This document shows positions 1 to 9,724 of a stretch of DNA of 64,000 nucleotides, piece by piece (within the stretch, counting starts at the first letter, position 1; the number at the start of each line of letters is the position of its first letter). A program made the translations under genes and the position numbers. Below the pieces are notes generated by a model. It was given only the letters and a program-made list of their open reading frames with translations, was not told the DNA's origin and did no database searches. Origin of the DNA: an uncultured Pedosphaera sp. (GTDB lineage Bacteria > Verrucomicrobiota > Verrucomicrobiia > Limisphaerales > Pedosphaeraceae); assembly GCA_903918755.1 (NCBI GenBank), contig CAIXFN010000082.1, forward strand, positions 1-64,000, read 5' to 3'.

Positions 1-72
1 CCACCCCTCCGGGGATCGGCTGCGCTCGCCTCGCTACGCTCGCCTTCGCTCCGCCTCACCCCGGAGGGGTGG
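1..72. repeat. GC-rich inverted repeat (hairpin)
   Basis: Perfect 14-bp arms CCACCCCTCCGGGG (1-14) and CCCCGGAGGGGTGG (59-72) flank a loop made of short reiterated GCTCGCCT/CGCTACGCT words. It may be a dispersed intergenic hairpin or a strong terminator for a gene left of the window. It is cut by the window start, so its true extent is unknown. Confidence 0.6.
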
Positions 73-874
73 CGGCGGGGAGAAGAAAGACAAATTACAG
101 AAAGAGTTTTACACCGGCTTTTCGCGGTTCGATTTGGCATTTTCTTCGCAACACCTATGGACACTGAAAGCATATTGCGATCCCAATCAGACTTGTTTTT
201 AAAGGCAAGCCACATCCGATTACAGTGTTCGGCCGCCATTCGCCGCTTGCCGGCCCGATCCTGCGCAGCTAATCACTGTGCTGCTCTGGCGTCACCCCAC
301 TTAATACGGAGTGGGTAAATGTGAAACTCGCCGCTGGACCCGTAATTGAGCCAATTCCGATGGTTGGGTCGGCGCCTGGCCGGGGCTGATTGCATATTCG
401 CGTGGTCATCGAGTACCGTACAGTCACAAACAACTAAAAGATGGATGGGTCCAAACTGGTGGATTTTGAACGGGAGGGGGAGGACGTTCAGGGTAATGAC
501 CCGAACACTGCCACCGTCGCCTGCGCTTGGTCCGCTTCTCCAAATATCATGAGCCGGGCGACCCCCTTATCGCTGTGCAAATCGTGACATCCCAAGGCCC
601 GAAACAGCTCAGCCCGCATACGCTCCTCGAACCAGGCGTGAGCAGAGATCATAATCCGAAATTGAGAATTGACGACTTCGATCCAGTTTCATATTGTCAT
701 GCGAATGGTGGCACAATAGGTCTCCATCGGCTTTGTGCCGAGCAGCTTGAGCTTGAGAAGAAACATTTTTCTAGGGCGATTTGAAATGTATTAATAATCT
801 GTCAGTAAAGATCGTCATTCCCATAAGATAAAACGAGTTGGAAATTAGCATGCAGCAGGTAAACTTGTGATTTC
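73..874. other. intergenic, no supportable gene
   Basis: Short open frames exist (for example about 346-552 and 527-784, plus strand) but they overlap one another, lack convincing ribosome binding sites and resemble no family I know. The DNA becomes AT-rich towards 800, marking the left edge of the accessory island. I see no RNA gene. Confidence 0.5.
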
Positions 875-1414
875 ATGCCAAACACTTCATCCAAGGTAGA
901 TTCCGCTATCGATCCCTTGCGGATCGCAGAAAAGATTACTGAGGTTGTAGCGGCGATTCTTTCGACGGCTTTTCTATCTGGCATCAATATTGTTGTTTCG
1001 GGCCATTTGCTCGGCTATGCTTTGAGCATCAGCGGGGAGGAAGAAGCAACGAATGATGGAAATGTATTCTGGCTTCGCATTCCATATATATTTAGTATCC
1101 GAGTTCGAGGCGCTCTTGTTGTTGCTGGATTCACAGCCTACTCAGTTTCCTTGGCTTTGACTGGAACGATATTGCCAAAATATGCCAAATTGATTTTCAT
1201 TGACAATTTAAACGCCACTACTTCTCAATGGAACGCCTGCCAGGGTCTTGCCGCTCTCGTGAGTGTTGTCTTCTGTTTGATGTTGGCAGCATTCAGGCTG
1301 CTATTCGATCTTTGGAGAGCAAAGGAACTAACTAATACTAGAAAAGTTGAAGTGGATACGCCAGAGGCGCGTGTCAAGAAGCTTGTCAGCGACAATGAGA
1401 GGCGAAATGGATAA
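875..1414 (+). CDS. small multi-spanning membrane protein, unknown function
   Basis: 179 aa, no family recognised. Three hydrophobic stretches are visible, at about residues 27-50, 84-105 and 124-148, followed by a charged cytoplasmic-looking tail rich in Lys/Arg/Glu. The last 8 bases overlap the start of the next gene (ATG at 1407), so the two are very likely translationally coupled. This suggests the protein is a membrane partner of the ParA/MinD-like ATPase. Composition is AT-rich like its two neighbours and unlike the GC-rich core after 6 kb, which points to horizontal acquisition. The start is the first ATG of the frame; no strong Shine-Dalgarno is seen. Confidence 0.65.
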   Translation: MPNTSSKVDSAIDPLRIAEKITEVVAAILSTAFLSGINIVVSGHLLGYALSISGEEEATNDGNVFWLRIPYIFSIRVRGALVVAGFTAYSVSLALTGTILPKYAKLIFIDNLNATTSQWNACQGLAALVSVVFCLMLAAFRLLFDLWRAKELTNTRKVEVDTPEARVKKLVSDNERRNG

Positions 1415-2618
1415 TATTGAAAGCAAAACAGAGCCCTATGTGATGGCGATACTCAGTGGAAAGGGCGGAACTGGCAAGAGCATCATTGCGGCTTCGCTCG
1501 CTTACGTTTTGGCCAATTGCGGTTTCAAAACTCTACTAGTGGACGTAGATCTTTTCACGGGTGGCCTTTCATTTTATGTTTTAGCAGAATATCCGGCCCA
1601 TCGCTCAGTAGCTCTCCAAAACATATTCCTCGGAGTTGCAGATCAAGAATTCAAGCATCTGCGCCCAACTCCAATTCCTAACGAGTTTTGCGAAAAGAAT
1701 TTATTTCTCTTACCGGCAATTGCTAGCAAAGCAAGACGTCATTCAGAGCTTGTAATCAATTCACAATTCCAAAGTGTGGATTCGTTCTCGAGAACTCTTC
1801 AGGAAATCTTAACGAACGTCAACCGCGCACAGAAGTTTGACTATATTTTAATCGATACCCGTGGAGGGACTGACTTAACAAGTGTTGGCAGCGCGCTCGT
1901 TGCTGACGGTTTCATTGTTGTAACCGAAGCTGACAAGACATCGTGGGACGTAGGTGAAGTTCTCTTTGCCGCCATTCACGATGCCCAAAAGGAAACTTCA
2001 CATTTTGCACACGCTCTGGGATTCATTCTAAACAAAAATGTTTTACCACCCGAAGCAATTGTGGCGTTTCTTAAGCAACGCTGGGAATGCCCTCACTTGG
2101 CTACCCTCCCACTCGATGAAAATGCAATCAGATTTTATCAAGAGGACCGAGTCCCAATTGCAGCAGACCCAACCTGCCCTTTCAGTGCGGGACTGATTCC
2201 GATCGTTCGTAAATTGTTTGTGTCCGAGGCCTGGGCTCCTGACAATACTTATAGACTCGGCATACTTGAGAATCGTGCAAAACAGGCCGCTAAATTGCGA
2301 GTGGATCTTGTTCAGTTAAGTAAGAAGGTGGATCGTGCATCATTTACAATAAGGCTTTATTCAACCGCACTTGTATGTGCTTTGATGGCTTACTTTATTT
2401 TTATATTTTACAGACTTGGTAATTCTGCTGTCGGTTCGCTGTTGTTGACTGTTGCACCTATTTTGATTGTCTTGATTACCGTAACGGAACCTAGAATTCT
2501 CTTTGGGGTTATCAAATTGCTTTCAGCTTTGAGATGGCCTAACTCCAAAAAGCGCTCATCAAAAGGAAGCATCTTTCGAAGCAAAAATTCAAAGAAATTG
2601 AAAAAGACAGGAAGGTGA
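1407..2618 (+). CDS. ParA/MinD-family P-loop ATPase with C-terminal membrane anchor
   Basis: 403 aa. Residues 18-25 are GKGGTGKS, the deviant Walker A motif of the ParA/MinD/SIMIBI class, with the signature lysine. A Walker B-like ILIDTRGGTD follows in mid-protein. Two hydrophobic segments (about residues 318-336 and 342-360) and a very basic tail of about 30 residues end the protein. Canonical ParA/MinD proteins lack such segments; MinD uses an amphipathic helix. The start at 1407 was chosen over 1347/1395 because it overlaps the upstream stop by 8 bases and has a purine-rich GAGAGG just upstream. The role is inferred: nucleotide-switched scaffold or positioning factor at the membrane, or sensor in a defence module with the neighbouring SIR2 protein. 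The ATPase class is secure; the biological role is not. Confidence 0.8.
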   Translation: MDNIESKTEPYVMAILSGKGGTGKSIIAASLAYVLANCGFKTLLVDVDLFTGGLSFYVLAEYPAHRSVALQNIFLGVADQEFKHLRPTPIPNEFCEKNLFLLPAIASKARRHSELVINSQFQSVDSFSRTLQEILTNVNRAQKFDYILIDTRGGTDLTSVGSALVADGFIVVTEADKTSWDVGEVLFAAIHDAQKETSHFAHALGFILNKNVLPPEAIVAFLKQRWECPHLATLPLDENAIRFYQEDRVPIAADPTCPFSAGLIPIVRKLFVSEAWAPDNTYRLGILENRAKQAAKLRVDLVQLSKKVDRASFTIRLYSTALVCALMAYFIFIFYRLGNSAVGSLLLTVAPILIVLITVTEPRILFGVIKLLSALRWPNSKKRSSKGSIFRSKNSKKLKKTGR

Positions 2619-2937
2619 AACCATCATTGCGGTGCCTTTACTTGGTTTTGTCTATAATACCTAAAATGGCCTTCAGTTACTTCATTTAGTTAATGCCTGA
2701 ATGTCTTGATTCTACCAACGTAGATCCGTGCCGAGCGGCTTCGAACAAGACTTGAGAATCAATTATCGTCTGATGAGCCTGTGCGACCGACGTGAGTAAA
2801 TTTTCTTGGATGGTGTCAATCGATAAGATTATCGCAATAATAGCGTTATTTACGAATACGTGGGTCCGCTCACAAACCAGTGCGATGAAACCATTCTAGC
2901 TTATTCAAACCAAAAAGCAAAGCCGAGGTTATCTTCA
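2619..2937. other. convergent intergenic region of the island
   Basis: AT-rich gap between two convergent genes. It holds a short dyad CGATAA-GA-TTATCG near 2820 that could help termination. A start-less open frame of about 60 codons on the minus strand ends near 2695; I do not call it a gene. Confidence 0.4.
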
Positions 2938-4959
2938 TCAAGCACTCCGAAGCATTTTGAGCTTTGCCATTGCATTGTCTATAAGGCTAGCCGGCAATCC
3001 GTTCATTTTAGTGATCTCAGTGAAGTCATCTAGAGCTTGTTGATTATCGCCGTTCTCTGCGGCGGAAATTCCACGGTTAAGTCGAGCCATTGCAACCAAT
3101 TCAATGGGAGAGCCTACCTGAGTGATTACAGCAGCATAATCTGCCATTTCCTTTATTGAATCGCCCATTCTGCCGAATTCATAAGCACGGTTTATCCGTG
3201 CCCTAGCGACGCGTTCCACTGGAACTCCTACTTTTTTGATCAATGTCGTATAATCCATTATTGCGCTTGAATGGTCTCCTCTTTGTCCTAAACTGGCGGC
3301 CCTGTTAAATAGCGCTTTTGTAACGATGTCAATCGGCGCATCTTCGAGTTTTATTATTGATCCGTAATCTGTAATTGCGTTCGCAAAATCTCCCCTCATG
3401 CCTAGCACGGCTCCACGGCTAAATAGCGCTTTAGCAACTTGTTCTACCGGGGCACCCGGCATAACAATTACGGCTGTGAAGGCCACAATGGCCTCTTTGA
3501 GATCACCTTGCTCAACGTTACACTTACCTATTCGAAAATGTGCAATTGCTTGATTGGCTTTTGATAGACGTGAATCATTTAATAGGTGTAAATAGTTGTT
3601 CAATGCCTCTGACCAATCTCGATTCAAATAATTGAGATTGGCGCGGCGTTCCAATTCGGCGAAATCGTCCTCGAATTCCAGGGATCCTATAAAACGCTTC
3701 TGAGCCTCCTCAAGCTGGTCTACGATTTGCATTCGCATCGTTTCGACATCCAATTCTGCCTCCGATTCCTCGCCTCTTTCTTCTTCATTATCTGGTTGAA
3801 TTTTGGCACTTTTTATTCCTGAAAGATTTACACATTTTAACTGCGAGATCAAAGGCCTGATCGGGTTGAAAAGCATTTCCGTGTTGGGCGCACCAGGGCA
3901 AAGGCGAGCATGCAGATCGGCCATAAAGTTGCCGCCATCTTCGATTTCGATCCAATATGCGTTTGTGTGCTTACTTAAGAAATCGGCGGACTTTGTGGAA
4001 ATACTATCACGATTTCTCACTAGCCAATATAGATTGTTGGAAAAAGCCGGCGTTTGCCTCAAGGCTTCTAGTAAGCAGTCGTCCCATCCACTGTATCCCA
4101 AGACAATGATTCCATGACTGCCAAAATATGGAACTAGATCACGGGCATTCTGCCTTTTAAGGTGCGCAATTTCGTTTGCACCATTCGCCATATAGGGTCG
4201 ATGAACGCTACCGTGTGCGTAGAAGAGATGCATCGCTGGATGGCCATCCGTCTGCAAGGCATCGGCTGACAACGCTTCGGGCCGATCGGTCATGTAGTAA
4301 AGGAGTTGGAATAGTTGTAACGATGTTTGTAATAATGGATCAAAATTGGTTGTGAAAATTGTTCGTGCAAATTCACGCCTTCCTGTATACATGTATTTTC
4401 CGCCTGATCCTAAATCATTGGAACCCTTTTGTAGCGATAGGAGTGATGCAAGGTAGAAATGGGTGGCGTTCAGCCTGGTACCGGGAGGCCCGTTTGCCAG
4501 TGTGATATCGCGCATGTACGCGCGTTGCCTTTCCGGAGAATCCAAACCACCGACCTGATTGGTTCCGAATAGAACTTGGTAGGCTTGGGGAATAGAGGTG
4601 GATTCAGGGAGACCTTTATCGTTTAAGATGATTTGTGATGTAGGGTTGTTAGCGCAAAAGTTTTTCCAAAACATTCTTGAGCAGGCCAAACGCTCGGCGC
4701 TTGTTACTAACGAAGTTTTGGATTTGAGTTTAGCAGCTAACCATAACGGAATACTCTTCTCGTGGATCTCCTTTGTTCGGGGATCCGGTAAGCCCAGCAT
4801 TTCTTTAGCGGTCGGAACCACACCAGAACTGGCACCTGCCCCAAGGATCAATGTATAAGCTGGCGGGTCATTCACATCGCCCGAGCGGAGAACATCCTCA
4901 ACTTTGGCGAGCATGGTCTCTTTGGTCATCTTCTTGTCGTCAAAGTTAGGTTCAAGCAT
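2938..4959 (-). CDS. SIR2-domain protein with C-terminal TPR repeats, candidate NADase effector
   Basis: 673 aa. The N-terminal half is a SIR2-like Rossmann domain: GAGAS at residues 40-44 (NAD loop), TTNFD at 203-207, a His-Gly pair at 249-250 (candidate catalytic His) and VLGYSGWDD near 286-294. These match the SIR2 domains of anti-phage effectors such as ThsA and DSR2, which hydrolyse NAD+. An acidic linker (about 385-410) leads to five or six repeats of about 41 residues (430-665) with the pattern A+AxxxRGxxxGxxGDxxxAIxDY, a TPR type often fused to TIR or SIR2 domains. All key residues are present, so activity is plausible. It is convergent with the ParA/TM gene pair in the same AT-rich island. 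The start could also be the ATG at 4929. Family assignment is strong; the defence role is inferred. Confidence 0.82.
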   Translation of the reverse strand: MLEPNFDDKKMTKETMLAKVEDVLRSGDVNDPPAYTLILGAGASSGVVPTAKEMLGLPDPRTKEIHEKSIPLWLAAKLKSKTSLVTSAERLACSRMFWKNFCANNPTSQIILNDKGLPESTSIPQAYQVLFGTNQVGGLDSPERQRAYMRDITLANGPPGTRLNATHFYLASLLSLQKGSNDLGSGGKYMYTGRREFARTIFTTNFDPLLQTSLQLFQLLYYMTDRPEALSADALQTDGHPAMHLFYAHGSVHRPYMANGANEIAHLKRQNARDLVPYFGSHGIIVLGYSGWDDCLLEALRQTPAFSNNLYWLVRNRDSISTKSADFLSKHTNAYWIEIEDGGNFMADLHARLCPGAPNTEMLFNPIRPLISQLKCVNLSGIKSAKIQPDNEEERGEESEAELDVETMRMQIVDQLEEAQKRFIGSLEFEDDFAELERRANLNYLNRDWSEALNNYLHLLNDSRLSKANQAIAHFRIGKCNVEQGDLKEAIVAFTAVIVMPGAPVEQVAKALFSRGAVLGMRGDFANAITDYGSIIKLEDAPIDIVTKALFNRAASLGQRGDHSSAIMDYTTLIKKVGVPVERVARARINRAYEFGRMGDSIKEMADYAAVITQVGSPIELVAMARLNRGISAAENGDNQQALDDFTEITKMNGLPASLIDNAMAKLKMLRSA

Positions 4960-5976
4960 GACTATGAAGTCTTTCTTGCGCTAATGGTGGTATGGTTTTT
5001 GAAATTTCAGACATTGCTATTCGGATGTCGTGAGTATGATGATCACAAATTGGCGTGGTAACGCTGCTTGGAGGCGAAAGCAGGCCTTGGGTTAAAGTTT
5101 GCTATATTTCCGGTCGTTATCACAGTCATTGTTTAAATACCTGAGGACTCAAATGTTGGCAAGCTTTTCAGTGGATGGATTCACTGGATTGTGCTTTCAG
5201 TGGTTTGATTCGCCAACTATTTTGGGGCGATTTCGCCTTGGCTGTTTCAGTGCGTTAGGTTTCGCTGCGGCTGGCGAGGGAAGGAGATGCGCATTCACCC
5301 GGTTATGCCGCTCGCGATTGCTCCGCGCGAATTAGCGGAAGCGGGGATCTTTGTCTTGCGTAGCATCCTTTGGGCGCGAGCCGGGGCTGCTTGGGCGGCT
5401 GTCGATTTGCGCATGCCTTAGTTTTGGTCGGATGGTGTGGTGGATGTTACTCATCGCCTAATGTTTCCACAATTCTTTCAAAAACGCGTTTTTATATCCT
5501 CTCATAGGAATGCTTTATCGCGAATCTTGTGCTAACACAGAATTTCGTGGGAGAGATTTGCGGTGCTCGAAAGGTAGCACCGGCATTGGCCAGGGGAGGC
5601 TTGGGCTCGCCTACCGGCTGGCTGACGTTAAATCAGTCCTGGGCGCACTCGCGCTGTGGGCTATTGAAGGGGTTCCCGGCTATCACCTGGAACCTGCCGA
5701 ATCGGATGTGACTGAGTTCCGTTGTCGCGTGCCTGCTGCCTGAAACTCGCCTTAAATTCCACGAGATCGTTATGCGGGGGTTTTCCGAATGGGCGTGGCC
5801 ATCTTCAAGGCCCCTATCGCACCCGATTAAAATTCTGCTGGAGCCCCGCGGGTTGCGTGTCGCTCCAGAGGTAGGGTGGCGTGGCGGAGAAATTTGTCGC
5901 TCTCTGCGCTTCCGCTGCCAGGCCTCCGAAGCATTCAGCGAAGGGGGGTGAGCCTCTCCCCTCGGATTCGCCCCTT
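4960..5976. other. gene-poor stretch, about 1 kb
   Basis: The first 200 bases are presumably the promoter region of the minus-strand SIR2 gene. Open frames here (5099-5335, 5510-5743, 5633-5980) show no family features. Near 5494-5512 lies ATCCTCTCATAGGAATGC, resembling part of the repeat at 7855-8060, so this may hold a decayed copy. Composition shifts from AT-rich to GC-rich across the stretch, marking the right edge of the island. Confidence 0.45.
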
Positions 5977-7101
5977 TCACCGATCAAAGAGCAACATCAG
6001 ATACGCGCCGAACAGCAACAGATGGACACAACCGGGGAGCACGTTGGTTCGCGGCAGGGAAAAGGTCAGCATGCTGGTCACCAGCGTGAGCAGGAGCATC
6101 ACCGTGTCGGTGGCGTCCAAGCCGAGCACCAACGTGCGTCCCGTGACCAGCGACACAGTGATGACGAGCGGAATGGTCAACCCGATGGAGGCCAGCACCG
6201 AACCGAGCAGCACGTTCACCGCGCGCTGCAAGCGGTTGGCCAGGGCGGCGCGGATGGCGGCAATGGATTCCGGGGCGAGCACCAGCAGTGCCATGATGAA
6301 TCCGCCCAGGGCGAGCGGCGCTTTCAGTTTGAGCACCATGGCGTCGAGCGGCGCGGCCATTTGCTTGGCCAGCAGGACCAGCGGCACGCCGTAAAGCCCC
6401 AGCATCACGGCATGGAAAAGCATGGGCCGGGAAGAATGCACTTCCGACCCGGGGGCATCGCCGGGAGCTTCCGGCATGGTGAAGAAACCCCGATGACGCC
6501 GGTTCTGCACCAACAAGAAGACCGAATAAATGCCCACGGACATCAGCGAGAGAAACACCATTTGAAATTTCGAGAGCACCGGGCCGGAGGTGGCGCGCGT
6601 GAAATTGGGCAGGACCAGTCCGAGCACGGTCAGCGGCAGGATCATCAGGAGAAATGCGTTCGCGCTTTGAAGATTGAAGGATTGCTCCCGGTGGCGGAGA
6701 CCGCCCAGCAACAGCGCGAGGCCCAGGAAACCATTGAGCACCAGCATGACCACGGCGAACATGGTGTCGCGGGCGAGCGTCGGCTTGGCTTCGCCGGTGG
6801 ACATGACGAACGCCACCATGCACACCTCCAAGCCGGTGATTGCCAGCGTCAGGAGCAAAGTGCCCAGGGGTTCGCCCAGCCGGTGGGCCAGTTCATCGGC
6901 GTGCCGGACAATGGCGATGGCGGCGGTCAGGATGACCGTGCAAATCACCCCGAGCAAAGCAACCAACATCACCGGCTGTTCCAAGGCGGCGGCCATCCCG
7001 CCTTTGCCCAGCAAGCAGCCAGCGAGCGTGACCACGGCGAGGGCGAGCGGCCATTCCCGCCACAAAGGACTGGGCGCTGGAGAGCAAGGCTTGCCTACCA
7101 C
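5977..7101 (-). CDS. chaA: ChaA-type Ca2+(Na+)/H+ antiporter
   Basis: 374 aa, about the usual length for ChaA (366 in E. coli), with around ten or eleven membrane segments. Both CaCA alpha repeats are recognisable: GEPLGTLLLTLAITGLEV in the first half and LVLAPESIAAIRAALANRLQ in the second, the latter carrying the conserved Pro-Glu-Ser that coordinates the cation. It exchanges cytoplasmic Ca2+ or Na+/K+ for protons at the inner membrane. The start is a GTG at 7101-7099 that overlaps the stop of the upstream lipoprotein gene, so the two form a coupled operon. Cation specificity cannot be read from the sequence. Confidence 0.88.
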   Translation of the reverse strand: MVGKPCSPAPSPLWREWPLALAVVTLAGCLLGKGGMAAALEQPVMLVALLGVICTVILTAAIAIVRHADELAHRLGEPLGTLLLTLAITGLEVCMVAFVMSTGEAKPTLARDTMFAVVMLVLNGFLGLALLLGGLRHREQSFNLQSANAFLLMILPLTVLGLVLPNFTRATSGPVLSKFQMVFLSLMSVGIYSVFLLVQNRRHRGFFTMPEAPGDAPGSEVHSSRPMLFHAVMLGLYGVPLVLLAKQMAAPLDAMVLKLKAPLALGGFIMALLVLAPESIAAIRAALANRLQRAVNVLLGSVLASIGLTIPLVITVSLVTGRTLVLGLDATDTVMLLLTLVTSMLTFSLPRTNVLPGCVHLLLFGAYLMLLFDR

Positions 7102-7622
7102 AAATGCTCTTTGGTTTGGTAGGGTACCGGCGCGCTGGTTTTGGCAGAAAGCTGATAATGCACCGATTCTTCACTGCGGTAACTGGTTTTCAAGCGATAG
7201 CCCCCTTTGGCCGAGGCGCCCATCCGCTGGTCCTTGCGCTGAACCAGGCTATTCCCATCGGCAACCAATGCCACTTGCACGGGAGTCACCCAGCCATCCT
7301 TGAGTTCCACCTCAACCACACAGGGTTCGCCCACCACGAGATTCAGAAACGTGACTTGCAAACGATATTGTCCGGGCGACAAGGCCAGCCGCAACCCGCC
7401 ACCGGCCGGCGGTCGGAAATCGGAAAAAAGTTTCTTAAAGCCTTGCGCACTCTCATCCCAGCGCGCCACCTGCCAATAAAAATCCCCGGATGGATCGGTG
7501 TGGAAATCCACATAGCCCGTGTTGGGGCGGGCTTTGGGTGGATTGACGTTTCCCGTGGCGCACCCACCCGTCCACAAGACGAGGACCGTGAAGGAAAAAA
7601 GCAGGTGAATTTTGCGATTCAT
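7095..7622 (-). CDS. predicted lipoprotein, unknown function
   Basis: 175 aa. The N-terminus (two positive charges, a hydrophobic run, then the lipobox TGGC at residues 18-21) is a signal peptidase II signal, so the mature protein is probably a lipid-anchored periplasmic or outer-membrane lipoprotein. The rest is beta-rich and resembles a small Ig/PEGA-like domain (SPGQYRLQVTFLNL, then VVEVELKDGWVTPVQVALV). The gene ends inside the first codons of chaA and is read on the same strand, so the two are probably co-expressed. No named family recognised. Confidence 0.75.
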   Translation of the reverse strand: MNRKIHLLFSFTVLVLWTGGCATGNVNPPKARPNTGYVDFHTDPSGDFYWQVARWDESAQGFKKLFSDFRPPAGGGLRLALSPGQYRLQVTFLNLVVGEPCVVEVELKDGWVTPVQVALVADGNSLVQRKDQRMGASAKGGYRLKTSYRSEESVHYQLSAKTSAPVPYQTKEHLW

Positions 7623-7854
7623 GAATTAATTTTGGTTCGCATAGCTTGCTGGTTCTGCGCTGAATTTCAATAATAATGGGGCGACGATCGGTTGCTTATA
7701 ATCGACCTGCCGCGATCATTGGGAAGTCGGCGCGCTGGTGCTTTCCCTGGCTCGCCGGGAGGTTTTCCCCTCCTCCATTGTCACCCTTGGCGGAAATTCG
7801 GGGGATCCGTTCCCAAAATCGTTAACCAAACAGACCCCATTTGTTCTAAAATCC

Positions 7855-8060
7855 CCCGCCAAAATCCTCTCGTAGGAATACGACCCCCGGGATCCCCTGC
7901 TAAAATGAATCGGAAGGCCGGGCAGCGCGCGCGAGAAGACACAGCCGTAGCGGCCACCCGCGGATTCTTTCCGCGAACCAGCCGTCGCCCCAACGGCCCG
8001 AGGCGGACCCGCTCCTTGACATATTAAAATCGATCCCGGCAATCGCCGCGAAGTCAGCCG
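7855..8060 (+). repeat. dispersed repeat family 2, copy A
   Basis: Compared by eye with the reverse complement of 54515-54725, this stretch shares, in order, a TAGGAATACGA block, ACCCGCGGATT, and the block GACATATTA followed by GATCCCGGCAA, with diverged DNA between. Length is about 200 bp. No coding potential is apparent. Confidence 0.6.
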
Positions 8061-8242
8061 CCTAATCGGTCGCCACTGGCGGTCCCCGCCGCGTGCCTGC
8101 TGCCCCAAGCAGCAGCGCGCGCGGCACCTTGGGGCCTGATTCGCAGCTAATCCCAATCAAAATAGTCGGGTTTTCTGTTCCGATCACGCCGACGTTTCCG
8201 ATAAACCCTTCATCCGCTGGTACCCAGTCCAGGTTCATGAAG

Positions 8243-8690
8243 CTTAGTCCAACTTCCGGACAGTTAATCCAGTTTCGCGATAATCCCTCCGGTTCCCCAA
8301 ATCACCCCCGAACCTCCGGCTGGCCGCACCCAACCGCCTAAAAACGGAACTCCCAACCTTGCGCCGGTCTTCCCCCGGCTCGGAGTTCCGCCTTCAGGCG
8401 GTTGGAGCTACCGCGGACCACCCCGCTATCGGCCTTGCGGACCGTTAGTCCAGTTTCCGGACAGTTAATCCAGTTTCGCGATAATCCCTCCGGTTCCGCA
8501 AACCATCCCCGAACCTCCGGCTTGCCGCACCCGACCGCATGAATGCGGAACTCCAAACCTGACGCCGGTGCCTCCCCGGCTCGGAGTTCCGCCTTTGGGC
8601 GGTTGGGGCTACCTTGGACCACCGCGCTATCGCCTTTTCAGACGGTTAATCCAACCTCCGGACAGTTAATCCAGTTTCGCGGCGACCCAC
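8243..8690 (+). repeat. 201-bp tandem repeat (about 2.2 units) with hairpins, family 1
   Basis: The core GGACAGTTAATCCAGTTTCG begins at 8258, 8459 and 8660, an exact 201-base period. Each full unit also carries a large hairpin with arms GGAACTCC/GGAGTTCC extended by CAACCGCC/GGCGGTTG (about 8330-8405 and 8530-8608). Diverged copies of the core occur on the other strand at 53774, 53881, 53984 and 54116. Confidence 0.85.
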
Positions 8691-8782
8691 CGCTTCCTCA
8701 GGCCATCCCCGAGCCCCATCCAGCGCTTCCCTCCTTCCGACTTCAATCCAGGTCGGTTGCATCCGAGGCTGGGCGGCAATCT

Positions 8783-9724
8783 TCAATACGGGCTGGCCCC
8801 ACTCTTCAGCGCGGAAGTGCGCCGGGCCAGCCACAGAATGTCCACGTTGTTCGGGACTCGTCCGAAATTCAATTGATTGATATCCAAGACTTTGGCGTTC
8901 AGGCCGCCCCGGCCCACATCGATGGATTGCATCCATTTGTGGATTTCAGCATGGCCATCCATGAAGGAAAAAGCCCCGGAATTATTGTGAAAGCCGGCGG
9001 GAACATCCACCCAGCCTTGGCTGGCAGTATCGGCGGCGCTGTCGGGCATCCGAAAGCCGAAGGCGCCGTCGTTGTTGCTGGCGGGATGTTCGTCGGTGAA
9101 CACCCACAAATCCGACGGGGAAGGGCTGGTGACACTGGATTCCCGGCTGTACACCCGCCATCTGCCACCCGGATTGGCCATGTTGATTCCGACCTGGGCG
9201 GAGTCGAGCCAATACCCGGGGGTAGGGGAGGCATCGCCAATGGCGTACGTGCCGACCGACTGGCTGGCGGAGACGCTGCGGATGCGGTGGACAATGCCGA
9301 CCCCGGGGCGATTCACCGTGCTCCAGTCCGCCGGGCACTGATAAATGCCGGGGCTCTTGGTATAGGGCGCCAGAACCGCGACTTTGGGGTTCAAGAGGGT
9401 GGCGGTGTCCCAATTGGCCGGATTGGACCCGTCGAAATCCAGGACACCTTGCAGCCAGCCATCGCCGCCATAAGTGTTGGGGAAGAACGTGCCGTGATTG
9501 TCGTCGGCATAGAGCTTGAAAGCCAGCACCAGCTGTTTTTGGTTATTCACGCACTGAATCCCCTGCGCTTTGACCTTGGCGCGGGCGAGGACCGGGAGCA
9601 GCATGCCAGCAAGAATGGCGATGATGGCGATGACGACCAGCAATTCGATCAGGGTGAATGCTGCCCGCGGATTCCAGGGCGGGGTCGGTAGGGATGAGGC
9701 GGTGGAGCTGGGCGAGGCAAGCAT
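8783..9724 (-). CDS. type II secretion/type IV pilin-like pseudopilin (prepilin N-terminus, H-X9-DG-like C-terminus)
   Basis: 313 aa. Residues about 22-45 are [20 protein letters not shown], the classic prepilin signal: cleavage before Phe, Glu at mature position +5, then a hydrophobic helix. The C-terminal half carries the FTDEHP-NND and [12 protein letters not shown] motifs of the expanded H-X9-DG pseudopilin family of PVC bacteria. Such proteins are processed by a prepilin peptidase and probably assemble into pseudopili or surface structures. Planctomycetes and Verrucomicrobia carry dozens of paralogues, so the specific role is unknown. It is divergent from the next gene with only 24 bases between starts. 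Confidence 0.85.

What the first reader, a model, noticed from the sequence alone, without database searches (positions are those of the whole stretch)
1407..2618. ParA/MinD-like ATPase with C-terminal two-helix membrane anchor
Seen: the C-terminal 90 residues hold two hydrophobic helices and a basic tail, and the gene overlaps a three-helix membrane protein gene. Known: most ParA/MinD proteins cycle on and off membranes or DNA and are not integral. Inference: a permanently membrane-tethered ParA would act differently, perhaps as a membrane-integrity sensor.
Basis: partly seen in the sequence, partly recalled or inferred. Interest (0 to 1): 0.5.

Follow-up and report, generated by a model that had tools for sequence, protein, structure and literature searches.

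The report
MinD-like ATPase with built-in membrane anchor
A bacterial ATPase of the kind that normally hops on and off membranes or DNA appears to carry a permanent two-helix membrane anchor and is encoded together with a small membrane protein, next to a probable virus-defence gene, in what looks like acquired DNA; what it does is not known.

Summary
Window 1407-2618 encodes a 403-residue ATPase with a MinD/ParA core (residues ~8-277; motifs KGGTGKS and LIDTRGG; VIA-align Z 24.7 to E. coli MinD). After it come a predicted stalk helix, two hydrophobic helices (~317-336, ~341-362) and a 41-residue tail with 14 K/R and no D/E. These helices lie outside the soluble core, where MinD has its weak amphipathic membrane-targeting helix. 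The gene overlaps by 8 nt a 179-aa gene with three hydrophobic segments and no family above threshold. Both lie in an AT-rich patch (44-46% GC) beside a convergent SIR2-TPR gene of defence type. Of 84 other KGG-type ATPase ORFs examined, none had two hydrophobic segments after the core. No full-length relative appeared in samples of 387 phylum, 384 class and 196 order genomes (overlapping) or in plasmids and phages. Best reading: a horizontally acquired, membrane-integral MinD/ParA-type switch with its own membrane partner, perhaps in phage or element conflict. Anatomy well supported by prediction; function inferred. 'Membrane-integrity sensor' has no specific support. It is a single orphan example.

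The parts
875..1414 (+). 179-aa membrane protein gene; hydrophobic segments at residues 24-42, 81-99, 125-143; charged C-terminal stretch
   Evidence: no Pfam, NCBIfam or PADLOC family at E<=1; PHROGs only 0.087 and 0.1; single-sequence AF2 all helical, mean pLDDT 57.6
1407..2618 (+). 403-aa MinD/ParA-type ATPase with C-terminal membrane anchor (the finding)
1428..2237 (+). MinD/ParA ATPase core, residues 8-277: KGGTGKS (19-25), LVDVD switch I (44-48), FDYILIDTRGG (144-154), LNKN (208-211)
   Evidence: motifs; VIA-align range 8-277, Z 24.7 to 3q9l_A
2247..2354 (+). predicted stalk helix, residues 281-316, continuous with the first membrane helix in the model
   Evidence: AF2 helix 281-336, pLDDT about 40 in this stretch
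2355..2414 (+). hydrophobic helix 1, residues ~317-336
2427..2492 (+). hydrophobic helix 2, residues ~341-362
2493..2615 (+). amphipathic-looking segment (moment 0.61 at 362-372) and basic tail, residues 363-403, 14 K/R and 0 D/E
2938..4959 (-). neighbour: SIR2-TPR protein, 673 aa, convergent; context rather than proven part
   Evidence: Pfam SIR2_2 and TPR; PADLOC SIR2-pAgo and PDC-S65 models over residues 197-353

Best explanation
A two-gene, horizontally acquired module: a MinD/ParA-type ATPase fixed in the inner membrane by its own C-terminal two-helix hairpin, working with the three-segment membrane protein encoded just upstream. Proposed cycle: ATP brings two cytoplasmic cores together as in MinD; since the anchor does not leave the membrane, the cycle does not decide whether the protein is on the membrane but whether neighbouring subunits pair, which a ~36-residue stalk passes to the membrane helices and to the partner, changing its assembly or opening. 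Most likely use: conflict with phages or mobile elements, as a membrane-acting response. Shown by computation: the fold, the intact motifs, the position of the hydrophobic helices outside the core, the overlap, the AT-rich patch, the SIR2-TPR neighbour. Inferred: membrane insertion, topology (N-terminal core and basic tail inside), partnership, ATP-driven pairing, and the role. I put the membrane-anchored switch at about 0.85, partnership with the upstream protein at about 0.7, and the conflict role at about 0.35.
For: MinD/ParA fold: 282 PDB matches at E<=0.001, best Z 24.7 to E. coli MinD. Motifs intact. Hydrophobic helices beyond the core, both ends K/R-rich. 8-nt overlap and a GAGAGG 4 nt before the ATG. 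GC 0.454/0.438/0.463 for the three genes against 0.56-0.63 for the three genes checked further on. SIR2_2-TPR neighbour. ATPase found in no other genome of the samples; SIR2 gene in 0 of 7 family relatives. Among NCBIfam models the best is AAA_KGGVGR, below its cut-off; PADLOC candidate-defence model PDC-M28B matches the P-loop region, E 3.8e-12.
Against: One example only, so no conservation supports the anchor or the pairing. The best PHROGs match is a ParA-like partition family (phrog_164, 5.4e-22), which points to partition as easily as to defence. The SIR2 gene is convergent, 319 bp away, so not in the operon. The PADLOC match to the ATPase covers mainly residues 7-61, the generic P-loop region. 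A gene unrelated to defence beside the patch (the Na/Ca exchanger, 5977-7101) is also missing from the 7 family relatives, so absence there is weak evidence of acquisition. Model confidence is low (mean pLDDT 58.4; stalk about 40, membrane helices 60-70). In the tree the protein is a long, unplaced branch.
Confidence: 0.4

Rival explanations
1. A partition or positioning ATPase of an integrated mobile element, tethered to the membrane so that a cargo (DNA or a protein complex) is held there.
For: phrog_164 'ParA-like partition protein' E 5.4e-22 over residues 7-215; AT-rich patch; contig breaks in a repeat found at 21 places.
Against: No Pfam match in the small flanking ORFs tested at 346-549, 527-781, 802-987 and 5099-5332 and no ParB-like gene seen at 1-6000; no integrase recognised there; no tRNA in the window; partition ParAs are soluble and bind DNA (recalled).
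Confidence: 0.2
2. A membrane-regulated signalling or envelope enzyme in the manner of two-part tyrosine kinases, with the upstream protein as activator.
For: Membrane protein plus MinD-fold cytoplasmic ATPase; weak match to the tyrosine autokinase model TIGR01007, 36.5 bits.
Against: Score far below that model's cut-off of 108; ParA-type KGGTGKS motif; no tyrosine in the last 60 residues, where these kinases have a cluster (recalled); no polysaccharide genes seen next to it.
Confidence: 0.07
3. A chance or decaying fusion of a ParA-type gene to hydrophobic sequence, without a function of its own.
For: Orphan in all samples; long branch.
Against: Open frame throughout with similar third-position GC along the gene (0.35-0.43); all ATPase motifs kept; positive charge on both sides of the hairpin; neat overlap with the upstream gene.
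Confidence: 0.15
4. The hydrophobic segments are not membrane helices but cover part of a soluble assembly.
For: No experiment; low model confidence. A designed helical repeat chain matches the tail region at E 0.00028, probably by composition.
Against: Means of 1.97 and 2.56 on the Kyte-Doolittle scale, hairpin length and flanking charge fit insertion; core fold is complete without them.
Confidence: 0.08

Closest known systems
MinD (E. coli; 3q9l)
   Same: Core fold (Z 24.7, 231 residues aligned, rmsd 2.6, 18% identity); membrane-binding element directly after the core
   Different: MinD has a short amphipathic helix with weak, dimer-dependent membrane binding (passages of PMC6803595); here two hydrophobic helices. 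Far below the MinD model's cut-off (42.6 of 212.9 bits); no minE gene recognised beside it
AAA_KGGVGR ATPases (NF047398)
   Same: Best NCBIfam model (64.9 bits); D-S/T/A-R-x-G in the second motif as in the eight above-cut-off members
   Different: Below cut-off of 90 bits; canonical lysine in place of the arginine; outside their clade in the tree; none of the eight has the hairpin, though three are cut at the 3' end
MinD/ParA domains in NTP-dependent conflict systems (Kaur et al. 2020, PMC7159879)
   Same: MinD/ParA domain in a probable conflict setting
   Different: There the domain is fused to other effector parts and predicted inactive (passages seen); here the motifs are intact and the protein stands alone
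KAP NTPases (recalled)
   Same: P-loop NTPase with a two-helix membrane hairpin
   Different: Different P-loop class and hairpin inside the NTPase domain, as recalled; not tested here

Membership tests
MinD/ParA (SIMIBI deviant Walker A) superfamily | Deviant Walker A KGGxxK[S/T] with signature lysine | tested here: met
   KGGTGKS at residues 19-25; motif definition from a passage of PMC9178275
MinD/ParA (SIMIBI deviant Walker A) superfamily | MinD/ParA fold | tested here: met
   Pfam AAA_31, ParA and CbiA above cut-off
MinD (septum site) | Score over the MinD models' cut-offs | tested here: not met
   42.6 of 212.9 bits (bacterial), 49.2 of 201.75 (archaeal)
MinD (septum site) | C-terminal amphipathic targeting helix right after the core | tested here: not met
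   Stalk and two hydrophobic helices follow the core; an amphipathic-looking stretch comes only after them
AAA_KGGVGR | Score over cut-off (90 bits) | tested here: not met
   64.9 bits
AAA_KGGVGR | Inside the clade of above-cut-off members | tested here: inconclusive
   Outside the starred clade, but a long branch whose place is unsure
Bacterial tyrosine kinase (eps_fam) | Model cut-off and C-terminal tyrosine cluster | tested here: not met
   36.5 of 108.05 bits; no Y in last 60 residues
ArsA/Get3 | Score over Pfam cut-off | tested here: not met
   22.2 of 24.3 bits
Plasmid/chromosome partition ParA | Adjacent ParB/adaptor gene | tested here: inconclusive
   None recognised at 1-6000, but the contig ends 874 bp upstream of the operon and many adaptors are short and poorly conserved
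Anti-phage defence system | Protects cells from phage | not testable with these tools
   Only location beside a SIR2-TPR gene

The most novel reading that the evidence does not exclude
The founding member of a membrane-integral MinD/ParA class in which nucleotide-driven dimerisation acts directly on membrane helices and a dedicated membrane partner, serving as a trigger for a membrane-damaging defence response.
Probability: 0.15. Interest if true: 0.65.

Novelty: new variant of a known kind. Interest (0 to 1): 0.3.

Why it matters
MinD/ParA ATPases are understood as proteins that work by binding and leaving a surface. One that cannot leave would show that the same ATP switch can drive something else, such as pairing of membrane helices or gating of a partner, and could mark a further kind of membrane-acting defence module. 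With one orphan example the claim is a lead.

Tried and rejected
MinD proper, AAA_KGGVGR, tyrosine autokinase and ArsA/Get3 membership: scores under the curated cut-offs. SLATT or other known two-helix effector domains in the tail or in the upstream protein: no Pfam match near significance. PDB sequence matches to the tail (designed helical repeat E 0.00028, TMEM63/CSC1 E 0.03) taken as matches of helical composition, not followed. Weak CARF and PtuA matches to the ATPase (E 0.0026-0.032) taken as noise.

Search for full-length relatives: phylum sample, E<=1e-8, 2 of 387 genomes including the window's own; the other (G370) matches only residues 12-180 and is a 254-aa soluble type. Class 1 of 384, own only. 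Order 1 of 196, own only, E<=1e-6. In some searches at most 4 candidates per genome were scored. Plasmids: 333 records matched, 0 over 80% of the query; C-terminal part and membrane protein, no match at E<=1. Phages: 4 records, none over 80%. The last two kinds depend on short peptide patterns and are weak as negatives. Membrane protein in the phylum: 2 of 387 including own; the other (G161) is a MotA/ExbB-like ORF by eye (E 5.2e-4) and was not followed.

Tree of 80 ATPase cores: the window protein is an unplaced long branch (3.48), outside the Mrp half (fork support 94/77) and outside the KGGVGR and RGGTGKS clades. Viral structure library: only generic ParA/CpaE-like matches.

Papers: searches gave no description of an integral-membrane ParA/MinD in the titles and abstract openings listed; several term sets returned nothing at all, so this is weak evidence that none is in print. 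Preprints and most subscription journals are not in that library. Passages only were seen of PMC7159879, PMC6803595 and PMC9178275.

Changed on checking: the count of other KGG-type ORFs was redone with a wider motif and removal of duplicates, 84 instead of the 84 rows that included window copies and duplicates; an earlier hand count of 79 was dropped.

Full report
What is there. The ORF at 1407-2618 (+) encodes 403 residues. Pfam finds AAA_31 (1.8e-13), ParA (9.1e-13) and CbiA (6.4e-11), all over their cut-offs; NCBIfam's best model is AAA_KGGVGR at 64.9 bits, below its cut-off of 90; PHROGs gives a ParA-like partition family at 5.4e-22. The deviant Walker A motif KGGTGKS, the LVDVD switch, the FDYILIDTRGG motif and LNKN are present, so ATP binding and hydrolysis are expected.

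The anchor. Kyte-Doolittle peaks lie at 317-335 and 341-359 (1.97 and 2.56), followed by a tail with 14 K/R and no D/E in 41 residues; the 46 residues before hold 9 K/R and 5 D/E. A positive charge on both sides of a close-set hairpin suggests both ends inside the cell (inference). AlphaFold2 with a thin alignment of 7 sequences gives the core, then one helix 281-336, a second 340-360, a short one 362-374 and an unstructured tail; mean pLDDT 58.4, about 40 in the stalk and 60-70 in the membrane helices. Foldseek and VIA-align match only the core: the 50 rows listed span model residues 3 to 285, best Z 24.7 to E. coli MinD over 10-275. In MinD the same place holds the amphipathic membrane-targeting helix, residues 256-270, which binds weakly and needs more than one copy (passage of PMC6803595).

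How unusual. Most come from the window's phylum and many are Mrp-type, so this is a sample of the neighbourhood and not of all bacteria. Full-length relatives were not found (limits under Tried and rejected). In a tree of 80 cores the protein is a long unplaced branch, outside the Mrp half and outside both the KGGVGR and the RGGTGKS clades.

The partner. The gene at 875-1414 encodes 179 residues with three hydrophobic segments and a charged end. It matches no family at E<=1 in Pfam, PADLOC or NCBIfam and no plasmid record at E<=1. Its end overlaps the ATPase start by 8 nt, with GAGAGG just before the ATG, which suggests coupled translation (inference).

The setting. The three genes have GC 0.454, 0.438 and 0.463 and third-position GC 0.40-0.45, against 0.562-0.632 and 0.65-0.82 for the three genes checked at 5977-9724. 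The neighbour at 2938-4959 (-) is a SIR2_2-TPR protein whose SIR2 part resembles short-pAgo-associated and candidate-defence SIR2 models. It is convergent and 319 bp away, so not in the operon. ATPase and SIR2 gene are absent from the 7 family relatives searched, but so is the Na/Ca exchanger gene beside the patch, so the absence alone says little. The contig begins in a repeat found at 21 places on 21 contigs, 10 of them at base 1 of the contig, so what lies upstream cannot be seen.

Reading. The anatomy supports a MinD/ParA-type switch that stays in the membrane. Since its location is fixed, ATP can only govern pairing, shape or partner binding; the stalk and hairpin would carry this to the membrane and the upstream protein. 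The role in conflict rests on context alone and I give it about 0.35. A tethered partition ATPase is the main rival (0.2), a non-functional fusion next (0.15). A membrane-integrity sensor is not excluded but has no evidence of its own.

Novelty. In known MinD/ParA domains of conflict systems the domain is fused with other parts and predicted inactive (passages of PMC7159879); reviews seen in passages describe amphipathic helices as the membrane-binding elements. An intact MinD/ParA ATPase with a C-terminal hairpin is therefore at least a variant not met in what I could search; the paper searches were narrow and cannot show that it is new in print.

Noticed in passing
window 1-119: The contig starts in a repeat of about 118 bases with a 25-nt imperfect inverted repeat (arms 1-25 and 48-72); it matches at 21 places on 21 contigs of the genome, 10 of them starting at base 1 of a contig, so a multi-copy element probably breaks the assembly.
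   Followed up: partly
window 2938-4959 (-): SIR2-TPR protein with GAGAS, TNFD and HGS-type motifs by eye, resembling SIR2 parts of pAgo-associated and candidate defence models; found in 0 of 7 family relatives.
   Followed up: partly
L008/L020, about 1234-3467 (-): A 254-aa soluble RGGTGKS MinD-like ATPase lies next to a secretin-like ORF (by eye); two relatives in other families (L019, L021) form a tight clade with it. Possibly a pilus or secretion ATPase.
   Followed up: partly
window 5977-7101 (-): Sodium/calcium exchanger-type gene of normal GC that is also missing from the 7 family relatives searched.
   Followed up: no
L017 1387-3630 (+): A KGGTGR-type ATPase fused to what look like TIR-like domains, a conflict-type architecture in the same phylum (by eye from the sequence).
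   Followed up: no
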